64,000 nucleotides of DNA from Thermosphaera sp. (GTDB lineage Archaea > Thermoproteota > Thermoprotei_A > Sulfolobales > Desulfurococcaceae), in the NCBI GenBank assembly GCA_038827615.1, contig JAWBNK010000002.1:1-64000 (forward strand). The letters are read 5' to 3'. How positions within the stretch are numbered: position 1 is the stretch's first letter; each line of letters begins with the position of its first letter. Shown piece by piece: positions 24,446 to 34,806 of this stretch. The notes under the pieces are model-generated. The model did not search any database, was not told the DNA's origin, and saw nothing but the letters and a program-made list of their open reading frames with translations. Both the position numbers and the translations under genes were made by a program.

Positions 24446-27400
24446 ATGGATGTGAATCAGCGTATGAATTCTGCGGATTCCTTCTTAGAGAGCAACGGCT
24501 TCCCGGTTGAAGAAGTAAACATTGCGAGCGCCAAGGAGAAGGGGCCCGGCCGCCCCCCGTTCTGGGAGATGGTTTTCTGGTGGACCAGGAAGCCCCTCGC
24601 CTCAGCCAGGGCCGTCATACTGGCAAGCCTCCTCGGCGAGGGCTTCGACCCCAAGCGATTCCTCAGGATAGCATACCCCTCCTACGAGGGGAGGGGGAGG
24701 TTTTCGAAAACCCCGCACTACCTTAACCCCAGCATACACCTGCTCGACAAGAACGTGCAGGAAAGGATAAGAAGCGCCAGCCTCCTCGACCCCTTCTCGG
24801 GCTTCGGCTCGATCCCCCTAGAAGCCATCAGGATCGGGGTCGGGAGGGTTGTGGCATCCGAGCTCCTTCCGTCCGCCGTGGTTTTCCTAAGAGCAGTCCT
24901 CGAATACCCTAAATGGGCGTCCGATGAAGGACTGGGAGACCAGCTGGTCAAGGATGTGGAGGAGTGGGGCAAGCGGGTCGTAGAGGGGTTGAGGAACGAC
25001 CCCGATTTAAAAGAACTCTACGATGGAGAAACAGCCGTCTACATCGGGTCCTGGGAGGTTAAATGCCCCTACTGCGGCAGGTACACCCCCTTGATAGGGA
25101 ACTGGTGGCTGGCAAGGGTCAAGGGCGAGAAAGGCTTCAAAGCACTAGCCTGGATGACGAGCGAGAAGGGAAGCGATGGAGTCGAGATAAGAGTGGTCGA
25201 CCTGACCGGGAGCGAGGACCTCTCCAAGGCAGAGCCGATAACTCGTGGAAACAAGACAGTAGGAGTCCGCGTGAACGGGAGAGAATACAGAGTAGGGGAC
25301 CCAGCCCTCAACGGGGAGCCGAACATAAACGCTAGAAACCAGGACGCCGCATGCCTCCACTGCCACGCAAGGCTCAAGGGAAACAATAAGAAATGGATCA
25401 TGAAAGAATCCCTGAAAACCTGGAATCAAAACCTCGAGAAATACCTGAAGGGGGAAGCAACCCTCGATGAATTAAAGAACTCGCCGGCGAGGCCGAGAAT
25501 ACTCGTAAAAGTCAAGGCAGAAGCCGCCGGTAAAAACCTAGCATTCGAGCCCGCAACACAGCAGGACAGCGAAAAGCTCTGGAGAGCGCTGGAAAAGCTC
25601 AAGCAGATGTGGGGAGACCCAGACATACCAACAGAGCCAATACCAGAGTATGAAGGAAGAAGCATATGGGTTATAGCCTACGGCTTCAACAAGTGGTTCA
25701 AGCTCTTCAACCCGCGCCAACTCCTAACCCTGGTGAAACTAGTCAAGCTGGTACGCGAAGCCGGTAGGAGGGTGGAGGAGGAGAAGCTGAAGCAGGGCTG
25801 GGACAAGCAGAAAGCACACAAATACGCAGAAGCAATAACAACATACCTAGCAATAGCGCTATGCAAACATGCTGATTACAACTCCATGGAGTCTGGATGG
25901 CAGTTATCCTATTTAATTGCGGCACATACTCTAGCCATGAGAGGTATAGCCATGGTCTGGAACTGGGGTGAATACTGCCCATTCTCCAACTACTCAGGAA
26001 CTTTCGAAACCATGTTAACGAGAAGTATTGTTGAAGCCATTGACTACCTCATCAGCGCCGTCTCGGGTAGTCCTAGTCGTGTCGAGGTTGTGCTGGATGA
26101 TGCCACGGTTCTCGGCAGGCTCGGGGATGAGAGGTTCGACTTGATCGTTACGGACCCGCCTTACAGGGACGATGTTGCCTATGCTGAGCTAAGCGACTTC
26201 TACTACGTTTGGCTCAAGAGGGCTTTGAGCGATAGCAACGGGGCTGTGCTCGCGCCGAGGTTCCACGGGGACTTGTTCTTCAGCAACGAGGTCGAGGTTC
26301 CCACGCAGTGGCAGTGGTTTGCGAGCAGGGAGGTCTCGCTCAGCCAGGGCAGGTGCCAGCACTTCGGACAGGCCTCCTCGCCCGAGGACTGCGAGAGGGT
26401 CTTCAGGCACTTGCTCACGGCGAGCTTCAGGTCGATGACCTCTAAGTTGAAAGATAACGGGTTGATCGTGACTTACTTCGCGCAGAGCTCCCCGGACGCG
26501 TGGGCATCCCTCATCGACGCCGGGCTCGACAACGGGGTCTACCCCAGCGACGCCTTCCCCGTTTTAACCGAGAGCGAGGAGAGCGTTGTAGCCCGGGGGA
26601 AGGCGGCGATATCCGCCAGCATCGTCGTCTCGTGGAGGAGGGCTGAGGGCGGGGAACCCCTTGACTTATCGGCCAAGTATGATGAGCTGGTCGAGGCGGC
26701 TTCCCAGGGATTGAGGAGGATTGAAGAAGCTTTAGCCAAGGCTGGAAACGGGGTCGCCACCGAGATCCACGGGGTCACAGTCTACGTCATGAGCTACGCG
26801 TACGTCCTCAGCCTCCTCACGAGGCGTGGGAGGCCGGTTAGAAACGGCAGGCCATTAGCCACCGAGGAGATAGTGAAGCTCGCGGCCGAAATACTCTCAC
26901 AGGCCTACGCCAGGGCCACGGGCGCGAAGTTAACGAGCAGCGACTCGATATTCTACTTCTTGGTGAAGAAGGTTTTCCCAAAGAGCCCCCAGGGGAGGAG
27001 GCTGGCGTCGAGCAGCGACTTGATACTGCTGAGCTACGGGCTGAGAGGAGAATCCTCAACCCTGAAGGCGCTCGACGACTTCACTAGGAGGATGGTAATC
27101 AAGGCGTACGGCAGGGAGGATGAGACAGAGGTGGCAAGCAGGAAAACCTACATCCTGATAGAGCCCGTGAAAGCCAACGACGAGCTCGAGCTCTCCGAGG
27201 TGTTAAGGCAACACGGCGTCGACGCCGACAATCCCTCGAGCTTCAAAAGCCCAGTGCACGTTGTCCACGCCCTAATGCTCTACTCTCTCAAACCCAAGGA
27301 CGTGTTCGCAAAATACTATGAGAAGCTCTACACCGCCAACCCCGGGCTCGTGGCCGAGGCAGTGGAGCTCGCCAAGGCGCTGGCAACCCTAGAGGGGGAC

Positions 27401-27493
27401 CCCGAGGCCGAGCTAGCTAGAAGGATCTTAGAATATGTGGGTTCGAACATTCCTAGGCCTAGGAGAGAGGTGACCCTGCGTGACTACTTCTAA
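24446..27493 (+). CDS. DUF1156 adenine-specific DNA methylase with zinc ribbon (COG1743-like)
   Basis: The N-terminal stretch FPVEEVNIASAKEKGPGRPPFWEMVFWWTRKPLASARAVILASLL matches the DUF1156 pattern (SxREK...WWARRPLAAxRA). SAM-binding motif I is LLDPFSGFGSIPLEAI (about residues 113-128) and catalytic motif IV is TDPPYRDDVAYAELSDFYYVWLKRAL (DPPY at about 570), giving an amino-methyltransferase. Between them are CPYCG (about 206) and CLHCH (about 303) for zinc and a long helical insert. The C-terminal third (from about 740) is an unassigned domain. This is the first gene of a four-gene operon; its end overlaps the next start by 14 bases. It probably marks host DNA so that the ATPase/helicase partners spare it. 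The start is uncertain (TTG 24422, ATG 24446 or 24464). Confidence 0.88.
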   Translation: MDVNQRMNSADSFLESNGFPVEEVNIASAKEKGPGRPPFWEMVFWWTRKPLASARAVILASLLGEGFDPKRFLRIAYPSYEGRGRFSKTPHYLNPSIHLLDKNVQERIRSASLLDPFSGFGSIPLEAIRIGVGRVVASELLPSAVVFLRAVLEYPKWASDEGLGDQLVKDVEEWGKRVVEGLRNDPDLKELYDGETAVYIGSWEVKCPYCGRYTPLIGNWWLARVKGEKGFKALAWMTSEKGSDGVEIRVVDLTGSEDLSKAEPITRGNKTVGVRVNGREYRVGDPALNGEPNINARNQDAACLHCHARLKGNNKKWIMKESLKTWNQNLEKYLKGEATLDELKNSPARPRILVKVKAEAAGKNLAFEPATQQDSEKLWRALEKLKQMWGDPDIPTEPIPEYEGRSIWVIAYGFNKWFKLFNPRQLLTLVKLVKLVREAGRRVEEEKLKQGWDKQKAHKYAEAITTYLAIALCKHADYNSMESGWQLSYLIAAHTLAMRGIAMVWNWGEYCPFSNYSGTFETMLTRSIVEAIDYLISAVSGSPSRVEVVLDDATVLGRLGDERFDLIVTDPPYRDDVAYAELSDFYYVWLKRALSDSNGAVLAPRFHGDLFFSNEVEVPTQWQWFASREVSLSQGRCQHFGQASSPEDCERVFRHLLTASFRSMTSKLKDNGLIVTYFAQSSPDAWASLIDAGLDNGVYPSDAFPVLTESEESVVARGKAAISASIVVSWRRAEGGEPLDLSAKYDELVEAASQGLRRIEEALAKAGNGVATEIHGVTVYVMSYAYVLSLLTRRGRPVRNGRPLATEEIVKLAAEILSQAYARATGAKLTSSDSIFYFLVKKVFPKSPQGRRLASSSDLILLSYGLRGESSTLKALDDFTRRMVIKAYGREDETEVASRKTYILIEPVKANDELELSEVLRQHGVDADNPSSFKSPVHVVHALMLYSLKPKDVFAKYYEKLYTANPGLVAEAVELAKALATLEGDPEAELARRILEYVGSNIPRPRREVTLRDYF

Positions 27494-34600: not shown

Positions 34601-34806
34601 TGGCGGAGCTGACGCCGGAGGAGACCAGGGAGGCTGAGTCCAGCCCCGGGGAGTACATCGTCTGCAACGTAGCGGGCCTGGGCAGCGGGGACGAGTCGGA
34701 GTGGATTACTATATGCGAGTTTTACGAGAAGCTCCCGAGGGTTAAGAAGAAGAGGGAGGAGGAGTACGCGCTCCTTTTCTTCGGCCCAGGCCAGGGTGAT
34801 AGGTGA
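31669..34806 (+). CDS. SNF2-type DNA helicase with C-terminal DUF3883/PD-(D/E)XK-like domain
   Basis: The 1045-residue protein shows superfamily 2 motifs: DEVGLGKT (residues 72-79), VLAPRTLIKQWMHHEI, VIVDEAHQLNF (DEAH at 190-193), LLLSATPSRGS, STDVASEGLNLEQFNIVVNYDVPWSPVRREQRIGRVYRLRQ. This is the SNF2/RapA arrangement of translocases. The last ~130 residues contain PNPFDLLVEC followed by YKVEVKSHLDKVLVAELTPEE, i.e. Asp951, Glu968 and Lys970 in a D...ExK pattern, as in the NOV-C/DUF3883 restriction-type domain. It may cut or bind unmethylated foreign DNA while the motor translocates. The GTG start is embedded in the previous gene; last gene of the operon. Confidence 0.88.
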   Translation: MLDEPSLFLKHLLGRLLEPMYKYNPFFNVFYNPLASPPGPEIPRKPYYNYLHQVQLVLDAVPRRRVRVIVGDEVGLGKTIEALRVAKYLLATGEAKKILVLAPRTLIKQWMHHEIKDLLYSPGRIKRLTRKNVDEVERELERVAEAGDPFILLASIDLVKKSGLDEHAWGRFQPYYEIVSSINWDLVIVDEAHQLNFAGARDTVRTSRLSPLCERARHLLLLSATPSRGSHKDMLKRISLLIPEHKEKLKKLVSDEEARRSFYENASNYLVYRRMKEHVNHLEGRKEFTDLESFMAIVKLGEHRGVYEELGEVLSSILQRLDTRAYGLVKVLVLKRALSSPYSFLKTFSKVVSNRSVGRPLSKLPSERALEKRIDEVVEEVLSGLADSLPEDVVEKAQRLSLVFQELYEKGDPGFNALALLLYQVLMDHKDLPDVLKGDYIVFSEYYDTVCYLYSKLVEFFKSKGFTDAHAEKDRAIYEALRRVSEKEARGEFRRNYAEILSSATILLEREGRRILLIKLSSANQEIVHLIPDLVESIDDVVGSKGRVLKVLVSTDVASEGLNLEQFNIVVNYDVPWSPVRREQRIGRVYRLRQRRNCAVLDFVRDVGPDYEFYTKLVLKILNMFEQKIPPRSIGGVLELRVTDAKPGEKVLMISEKSIGLILSQYYESYYKEPRLSLDDAYRKLLEMVSEVKEMWEGLAPRYDEIEYVKSYVEDFTGCPDRSCFERAVEKTYRKLLGGAGGDLPWMILRLFEELVSSGEAGFSSDYVLIINDPGIEEGYVGVVEFVGEGVVKYATPLLALKRNGGWSLIHGLKAIEWIVDHAAEGRAMVFKAEKPLSEREIDEFRKQAELLANRFNLRIGERLERKRRNLADASGVVLQDLARLKPRIQDPVVRVFGAQSIRDYEKYRASLPLEKRQWMEEASTRLVEKMFAEKGCRVLERYVSKPNPFDLLVECPGSGGFARYKVEVKSHLDKVLVAELTPEETREAESSPGEYIVCNVAGLGSGDESEWITICEFYEKLPRVKKKREEEYALLFFGPGQGDR

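What the first reader, a model, noticed from the sequence alone, without database searches (positions are those of the whole stretch)
24446..34806. Four-gene methylase / DUF499 ATPase / small protein / helicase-nuclease operon: probable antiviral system
Genes overlap by 14 and 7 bases, with 2 between DUF499 and the small gene. DUF1156 methylases with DUF499 ATPases and an SNF2 helicase have been predicted as a defence module by genome context (COG1743, COG1483, COG0553). This archaeal version lacks a recognisable DUF3780 or phospholipase-D partner, and adds an unknown cysteine-containing small protein and a helicase with a D...ExK tail. No PglZ or DUF1998 protein is present, so it is not ordinary BREX or DISARM.
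Basis: partly seen in the sequence, partly recalled or inferred. Interest (0 to 1): 0.78.

Follow-up and report, generated by a model that had tools for sequence, protein, structure and literature searches.

The report
Archaeal four-gene DUF499 antiviral cassette
This is a heat-loving archaeon's version of a known kind of DNA self/non-self defence cassette (methylase, ATPase, helicase-nuclease); what is new is that its unnamed fourth gene appears to be a standing partner of the ATPase in many archaea and some bacteria, and that Sulfolobus viruses carry a shortened copy of the methylase.

Summary
In detail: four tightly packed + strand genes at 24422/24446-34806. They are a DUF1156 amino-methyltransferase, a DUF499 AAA+ ATPase, a 146-152 aa protein and an SNF2 helicase with a conserved D...ExK tail. 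The core three belong to a described kind: the archaeal COG1743-DUF499-SWI2/SNF2-nuclease operon (Bell 2020), PADLOC's Hma, and the 'BREX-related' (BR) systems of 2026. So the defence reading is supported, but the system is not new.

What adds to it: (i) The small gene is not an oddity. A 110-215 aa gene follows DUF499 directly in nearly all Thermoproteota cassettes of this kind. In a held-out search 14 of 16 new family hits fell in the same slot, and relatives sit beside DUF499 in haloarchaea, cyanobacteria, rhizobia and Rhodococcus. The wider family includes Pfam DUF7680, and one DUF3780 protein crosses DUF7680's cut-off. The window's own copy is so divergent that its membership rests on position, phylogeny and a weak profile match. 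(ii) Sulfolobus viruses STSV1/STSV2 carry the methylase without the C-terminal ~220-290 residues of cassette methylases: a probable counter-defence. (iii) The same genome holds a second, more typical Hma cassette.

The anatomy mixes BR Types 1 and 2.

The parts
24422..27493 (+). DUF1156 amino-DNA-methyltransferase, 1023 aa (1015 aa from ATG 24446); motif I DPFSGFG at residue 123, DPPY at 578, CxxC zinc-knuckle pairs at 215 and 311 in the target-recognition insert
   Evidence: Pfam DUF1156 1.3e-12; PADLOC MTase_II PDLC03352 3.8e-202 over residues 21-984, HmaB 2.5e-55; motif conservation in 49 homologues
27480..31232 (+). DUF499 AAA+ ATPase, 1250 aa; Walker A GGGKTH (110-115), Walker B LVDE (231-234); C-terminal part with a possible Ig/FnIII-like stretch ~1064-1096
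   Evidence: Pfam DUF499 2.9e-67, InlK_D3 0.15 only; HmaC 4.5e-28; Walker A residues conserved in 38-39 of 39, Walker B DE 39 of 39
31217..31675 (+). Small fourth gene, 152 aa from GTG 31217 or 146 aa from TTG 31235; cysteines in CxxxC (DCLAKC) and CxC (YCSC)
   Evidence: 46-56% identical to five relatives within the family; same slot in every complete cassette of this branch
31221..31227 (+). Shine-Dalgarno-like AGGAGGG, 7 nt before TTG 31235
   Evidence: sequence
31669..34806 (+). SNF2-family helicase with C-terminal PD-(D/E)XK-like tail (D951, E968, K970), 1045 aa; only ~50 residues precede the SNF2 domain
   Evidence: SNF2-rel_dom 4.1e-17, NOV_C 0.0017 (below cut-off); BrxHI 8.2e-43, DrmD 9.0e-42, HmaA 7.3e-36; catalytic triad conserved

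Best explanation
The locus is a four-subunit restriction-modification-like antiviral cassette of the DUF499 ('BREX-related'/Hma) kind. Inferred working: the DUF1156 methylase marks a short motif in host DNA. The ORC/Cdc6-like DUF499 ATPase, with the small protein bound to it as a constant partner, assembles on DNA and reads whether the mark is present. On unmarked DNA it licenses the SNF2 helicase, which translocates and cuts with its C-terminal PD-(D/E)XK nuclease. The small protein fills the slot that DUF3780 fills in Type-2 BR systems and most likely is a highly diverged relative. My guess is a DNA/mark-reading or ATPase-effector coupling role, because the helicase has no room for the N-terminal Tudor-like reader of Type-1 systems. 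Shown here: genes, families, motifs, conserved order, recurrence of the small gene, patchy spread, and viral carriage of the methylase. Inferred: assembly, mark sensing, cutting.
For: Families and motifs. Published prediction for the same archaeal operon (PMC7641849), system class (PMC8565338; PMC12839542). The latter cites an experimental antiphage study of the nuclease-SNF2 subunit in Halomonas, which I could not read. Patchy distribution: methylase in 50/214 genomes of the order, DUF499 in 21/393 of another archaeal phylum. Turnover: truncated or duplicated methylases. Cassette absent beside the conserved LipS1-LipS2-LplA block in four relatives. Small gene: present in the DUF499-helicase gap in all loci where both flanks are held; held-out HMM hits 14/16 in the same slot; bacterial and haloarchaeal relatives adjacent to DUF499 in 11/11 annotated contexts where the upstream gene is named. 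Counter-defence: STSV1/STSV2 methylase 46-47% identical over residues 21-740 or 13-747, nested among cassette methylases (support 0.96), but only 176 aa after DPPY against about 380-466 in cassettes.
Against: No experiment on any member of this archaeal branch. Curated NCBIfam antiphage equivalogs score far below cut-off (119 vs 1000, 63.5 vs 1200, 138.9 vs 1100). The immediate neighbours are housekeeping, not defence. The window-type small protein is not hit by the profile of the wider family and matches it only weakly by profile-profile comparison (E 0.006, 0 of 134 decoys as good). Structure models were low-confidence (pLDDT 54 and 41) and Foldseek found nothing. Sulfolobales cassettes lack the nuclease tail, so the nuclease is not universal.
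Confidence: 0.78

Rival explanations
1. A DNA-metabolism or replication-control module, not a defence system: an ORC/Cdc6-like ATPase plus an SNF2 motor with an epigenetic methylase that regulates replication or gene expression.
For: DUF499 is homologous to CDC6/ORC1 (PMC7641849); the SNF2 part resembles RapA; neighbours are housekeeping.
Against: Patchy presence within genus and order, decayed remnants and tandem methylase duplicates, cassettes on plasmids and beside integrases, conserved nuclease triad, viral orphan methylases.
Confidence: 0.08
2. The small protein has nothing to do with DUF3780/DUF7680: it is an unrelated lineage-specific subunit (for example a C4 zinc protein) that replaced the ancestral one in the same slot.
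For: Wide-family HMM does not detect the window type; profile comparison with DUF3780 alone is at decoy level; the cysteine pattern CxxxC...CxC is peculiar to the window type.
Against: Window-type cassettes are nested inside the clade of cassettes with the common type by methylase tree (support 0.99-1.0); same position and similar size; best profile match to the combined family exceeds 134 of 134 decoys.
Confidence: 0.3
3. The small protein is an accessory that antagonises or regulates the nuclease (antitoxin-like or anti-self-restriction factor) rather than a sensor or coupler.
For: Small, directly upstream of the helicase-nuclease and overlapping it by 7 bases.
Against: Where gene order differs (second cassette, euryarchaea, bacteria) it stays with DUF499, not with the helicase. 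A cassette with McrB-like genes instead of the helicase keeps it (L074/L077).
Confidence: 0.15
4. A decayed or non-functional copy of a once active system.
For: Remnants exist in relatives (G033 methylase of 312 aa).
Against: All four reading frames are intact with conserved catalytic residues.
Confidence: 0.03

Closest known systems
Archaeal COG1743 -> DUF499 -> SWI2/SNF2-nuclease operon (Bell, Wolf, Koonin 2020, PMC7641849)
   Same: Same three core genes, same order, archaeal, predicted restriction system
   Different: The passages retrieved do not mention the small gene; there an EVE protein is a recurrent partner, none is adjacent here
Type-1 BREX-related (BR) systems (Rakesh and Krishnan 2026, PMC12839542)
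   Same: DUF499 ATPase, DUF1156 methylase with zinc-finger TRD insert, SNF2 helicase with C-terminal PD-(D/E)XK
   Different: Type 1 is defined as three genes with an N-terminal Tudor on the helicase; here there is a fourth gene and only ~50 residues before the SNF2 domain
Type-2 BR systems (same paper)
   Same: A small alpha+beta protein gene directly after DUF499; no Tudor on the helicase
   Different: Type 2 has recognisable DUF3780 and an HKD (phospholipase D-like) nuclease at the helicase N-terminus; here the small protein is not a Pfam DUF3780 and the nuclease is a C-terminal D..ExK
Hma (PADLOC, Payne et al. 2021, PMC8565338)
   Same: Helicase, methylase and ATPase of the same families (HmaA 7.3e-36, HmaB 2.5e-55, HmaC 4.5e-28)
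   Different: Matches are partial and weak; the other cassette of this genome (contig C3) fits Hma far better (1.5e-93, 1e-60, 8.7e-87) and also has the extra small gene
STSV1/STSV2 adenine-specific DNA methylase (Sulfolobus spindle-shaped viruses)
   Same: 46-47% identity over residues 21-740 / 13-747
   Different: Stand-alone viral gene, lacks the C-terminal ~220-290 residues of cassette methylases

Membership tests
DUF499-centred BREX-related / Hma kind (general) | DUF499 AAA+ ATPase | tested here: met
   PF04465 E=2.9e-67, 227.8 bits vs cut-off 23
DUF499-centred BREX-related / Hma kind (general) | DUF1156 amino-methyltransferase with zinc-finger TRD insert | tested here: met
   PF06634 1.3e-12; C215 48/48, C218 39/44, C311 49/49, C314 41/49; DPPY conserved
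DUF499-centred BREX-related / Hma kind (general) | Swi2/Snf2 helicase | tested here: met
   PF00176 4.1e-17, PF00271 9.8e-14
Type-1 BR | C-terminal PD-(D/E)XK nuclease on helicase (79% of members) | tested here: met
   Motif level: D951/E968/K970 conserved 30/30, 30/35, 30/35; NOV_C 0.0017, below Pfam cut-off
Type-1 BR | N-terminal Tudor domain on helicase | tested here: inconclusive
   SNF2 match begins at residue 52-68 and no Tudor hit; no structure-level test
Type-1 BR | Three-gene locus only | tested here: not met
   Fourth gene conserved in the slot
Type-2 BR | Stand-alone DUF3780 gene | tested here: inconclusive
   No Pfam DUF3780 in the small protein or over cut-off in 398 Thermoproteota genomes. 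One DUF3780 protein passes DUF7680's cut-off (25.6 vs 24); DUF7680-type and common archaeal small proteins are one family (E 5e-10); window type linked only weakly (E 0.006)
Type-2 BR | HKD nuclease at helicase N-terminus | tested here: not met
   No PLD/HKD domain hit; ~50 residues before SNF2
Type-3 BR / BREX | PglZ (and iSTAND) gene in the locus | tested here: not met
   None among the operon or the neighbours scanned; whole genome not searched
DISARM | DrmB (DUF1998) with DrmA/DrmC | tested here: not met
   None in operon or scanned neighbours; helicase DrmD model 159 bits vs cut-off 610
NCBIfam 'anti-phage-associated' DUF1156/DUF499/PLD equivalogs | Score above curated cut-off | tested here: not met
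   119/1000, 63.5/1200, 138.9/1100 bits
Antiviral function | Reduces infection by virus or plasmid | not testable with these tools
   Needs experiment

The most novel reading that the evidence does not exclude
A fourth subunit of the DUF3780/DUF7680 group, largely unrecognised because it diverges beyond Pfam detection, is a constant partner of the DUF499 ATPase across archaeal nuclease-helicase (Type-1-like) and HKD-helicase (Type-2-like) systems. The published split 'Type 1 = three genes, Type 2 = adds DUF3780' is then wrong for much of the archaea, and STSV-like viruses evade these systems with a methylase stripped of the part that docks to the ATPase-small-protein complex.
Probability: 0.5. 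Interest if true: 0.6.

Novelty: new variant of a known kind. Interest (0 to 1): 0.45.

Why it matters
DUF499 systems are reported in thousands of prokaryotes, and a recent classification treats the commonest type as three genes. A recurrent fourth gene fixed next to the ATPase means a likely core part was overlooked in many annotations (it is 'hypothetical protein' in the plasmid records seen here). Reconstitution attempts with three genes could fail for that reason. It also links two system types through one subunit. The viral methylase of the long-studied Sulfolobus viruses STSV1/STSV2 gets a concrete, testable role: pre-marking viral DNA against exactly this class of host defence.

Tried and rejected
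DUF3780 Pfam search of 398 Thermoproteota genomes: no hit over cut-off; the best sub-threshold hit, when read, was noise. Direct profile comparison of the common archaeal small protein with DUF3780: at decoy level; only the DUF7680-type bridge helped, and that comparison alone is E 0.06 with 3 of 134 decoys as good. AlphaFold2 with two sequences, or with DUF3780 alone: low confidence; Foldseek vs PDB of the first: nothing. PDB sequence searches: no solved relative of the methylase, DUF499 (best hit E=0.095), small protein or DUF3780; helicase only RapA/SNF2. Viral contigs: no small gene or DUF499, only the STSV1 methylase. Exact empty site of the cassette: flanking LipS block conserved without the cassette, but the other flank is not syntenic, so insertion boundaries could not be defined. 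Circularity of contig C3: no terminal overlap. DUF7680 in the literature: no paper. I rejected 'small gene is universal': 10 of 20 DUF499 loci in a Halobacteriota-phylum sample have none, and the L101/L103/L104/L105 type has none.
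Full report
OBSERVATION. The methylase runs from TTG 24422 or ATG 24446 to 27493, DUF499 27480-31232, the small gene to 31675 and the helicase 31669-34806. The overlaps of 14 and 7 bases are right. The 2-base gap before the small gene holds for a TTG start at 31235, which has AGGAGGG seven bases before it; the longest frame opens at GTG 31217. Pfam gives DUF1156, DUF499 and SNF2/Helicase_C; the small protein matches nothing. Catalytic residues are intact and conserved among relatives: DPF.GFG and DPPY and two CxxC knuckles in the methylase, GGGKTH and DE in DUF499, DEVGLGKT/DEAH/GR..R..Q in the helicase, and D951...E968-x-K970 in its tail.

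WHAT IS ALREADY KNOWN. The operon COG1743 -> DUF499 -> SWI2/SNF2-nuclease was described in diverse archaea as a predicted restriction system by Bell, Wolf and Koonin (PMC7641849). PADLOC named the kind Hma (PMC8565338). Rakesh and Krishnan (PMC12839542) re-described it as DUF499-centred BREX-related (BR) systems in 3592 taxa, 408 of them archaea, with Type 1 (three genes, Tudor-helicase-REase), Type 2 (adds DUF3780, HKD-helicase) and Type 3 (adds PglZ and iSTAND). They cite an experimental antiphage study of the SNF2-nuclease subunit in Halomonas that I could not read.

NEIGHBOURHOOD SURVEY. The methylase has relatives at E<=1e-30 in 50 of 214 genomes of the order; one of the two other genomes of its genus lacks it. 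I took the surrounding DNA and looked for the other subunits. In every locus with DUF499 and helicase both held on one strand there is a small ORF in the gap of ~320-620 bases (one gap is 1016), for example 'LFWYSEFVERY......RVSSSLRSLY'. Decay and gain are visible: a lone 312-aa methylase fragment in G033, and tandem or fragmented methylases in Sulfolobales-like genomes. The LipS1-LipS2-LplA block next to the window cassette is conserved in four relatives without the cassette beside it.

HELD-OUT TEST OF THE SMALL GENE. A profile of the 35 small proteins (A1) was run over 398 Thermoproteota genomes; 31 had hits. Sixteen places not used to build it were fetched. Fourteen lie directly downstream of a DUF499 gene and beside methylase and/or helicase. 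One (L167) follows a different AAA+/STAND-like ATPase and precedes a DEAD helicase, and one weak hit has no gene there. Among Thermoproteota DUF499 genes with an intact 3' flank, 51 of 60 have a family hit downstream and 2 more a positional ORF. Some of these loci built the profile and 14 were found by it, so this count is descriptive; the exceptions are split DUF499 genes, L100 (small gene 468 bases away), and the L101/L103/L104/L105 type. In a sample of another archaeal phylum drawn by DUF499 alone, 7 of 20 have the small gene and 10 have none, so true three-gene systems exist.

IDENTITY OF THE SMALL PROTEIN. The haloarchaeal version is Pfam DUF7680 (E=3.6e-39) and a euryarchaeal one matches it at 6.2e-5, just under its cut-off. 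tblastn with that protein finds 'hypothetical proteins' on plasmids of haloarchaea, cyanobacteria, rhizobia and Rhodococcus. In all 11 contexts read where the upstream gene is annotated it lies immediately after DUF499, even where other genes separate it from the methylase. A twelfth context, Annamia, has only an unnamed fragment upstream. DUF7680-type and common archaeal small proteins are one family (hhalign E 5e-10, no decoy near). DUF7680 also hits the DUF3780 protein of Polynucleobacter over its curated cut-off (25.6 vs 24 bits, E=1.5e-5), and the two profiles align co-linearly over their whole length, though weakly (E 0.06, 3 of 134 decoys as good). DUF3780 occupies the same place, directly after DUF499. 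The window type is the hardest step: the wide profile misses it and profile-profile similarity is E 0.006 with 0 of 134 decoys better. The methylase tree nests window-type cassettes inside the clade with the common small protein (support 0.99-1.0), so divergence in place is the simplest account. I hold this at about 0.7.

MIXED ANATOMY. The window helicase has a Type-1 tail nuclease but only ~50 residues before its SNF2 domain, little room for the usual Tudor, and no HKD domain. In the bacterial and haloarchaeal DUF7680 loci checked, 297-346 residues precede the helicase Walker A motif, and the ones I read begin with a stretch resembling an HKD domain ('DR..GYFS', by eye), i.e. Type-2-like. 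The window therefore joins a Type-1 effector to a Type-2-like small subunit.

VIRUSES. Sulfolobus viruses STSV1 and STSV2 encode a methylase 46-47% identical to the window's over residues 21-740 and 13-747. It falls among cassette methylases (support 0.96 with three archaeal cassettes, best identity 54%) but ends 176 residues after DPPY, where cassette enzymes go on for about 380-466 (two incomplete or shortened ones excepted). The simplest reading is a virus-borne modification enzyme that protects viral DNA, without the C-terminal HTH region that in the cassette may dock to the restriction machinery. That is inference.

SECOND SYSTEM. Contig C3 of the same genome has DUF499 - small - methylase - helicase in the Type-2 gene order with a PD-(D/E)XK-like tail and ~115 residues before Walker A. 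PADLOC scores it as Hma (1.5e-93, 1e-60, 8.7e-87). It lies near HerA/FtsK-like and ParB genes, suggesting a mobile element.

MECHANISM. Best account: methylase marks self; DUF499 plus small protein survey DNA; the helicase-nuclease degrades unmarked DNA. Steps shown: composition, motifs, gene order, distribution. Steps inferred from the families: marking, sensing, cutting. The role of the small protein (reader or coupler) is my inference from its attachment to DUF499 and from the missing Tudor, following the published idea that DUF3780 replaces the Tudor reader (PMC12839542).

VERDICT. Real, defence-related, a variant of a known kind. The notable parts are the overlooked recurrent fourth gene and the viral methylase.

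Noticed in passing
L025:7938-16810 (contig C3 of the window's genome): Second DUF499 cassette (DUF499, 126-aa small gene, methylase, helicase) fitting PADLOC Hma much better than the window's, on a 22-kb contig with HerA/FtsK-like ATPase and ParB_N genes.
   Followed up: partly
L074:5259-12127 and L077:4867-11677: Staphylothermus-like cassettes in which the SNF2 helicase is replaced by an AAA_5/McrB-like protein with an EVE-like N-terminal region (by eye) and a 433-447 aa partner, while DUF499 and the small gene remain.
   Followed up: partly
L183:9926-12175 (STSV1); phage records AJ783769.1, JQ287645.1: Orphan cassette-type DNA methylase in Sulfolobus viruses STSV1/STSV2, C-terminally shortened; possible counter-defence.
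   Followed up: yes
L101, L103, L104, L105 (also L102, cut at contig end): DUF499-methylase pairs without the small gene or SNF2 helicase, divergent from a PD-(D/E)XK (RecB-like) protein, an SF1-like helicase and often a ~374-aa methylase: looks like a separate archaeal defence arrangement.
   Followed up: partly
L167:6019-12644: Small-protein homologue (130 aa, 49 bits) in a different operon: STAND-like ATPase (1015 aa), 358-aa protein, small protein, DEAD helicase related to SngC/BrxH models.
   Followed up: partly
L085, L086, L087, L089, L093: Sulfolobales-like cassettes have ~900-aa helicases without the D..ExK tail; their nuclease, if any, must be elsewhere. L089 and L085 also carry extra intact or broken methylase copies.
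   Followed up: no
window 17631-20232: NurA-HerA DNA end-processing pair a few kb upstream of the cassette (ordinary archaeal genes).
   Followed up: no
window 31217-31675: Window-type small proteins conserve cysteines as CxxxC and CxC, a possible metal site absent from the common type.
   Followed up: no
window 34924-37528: LipS1-LipS2-LplA lipoate genes, conserved in order in four relatives.
   Followed up: partly
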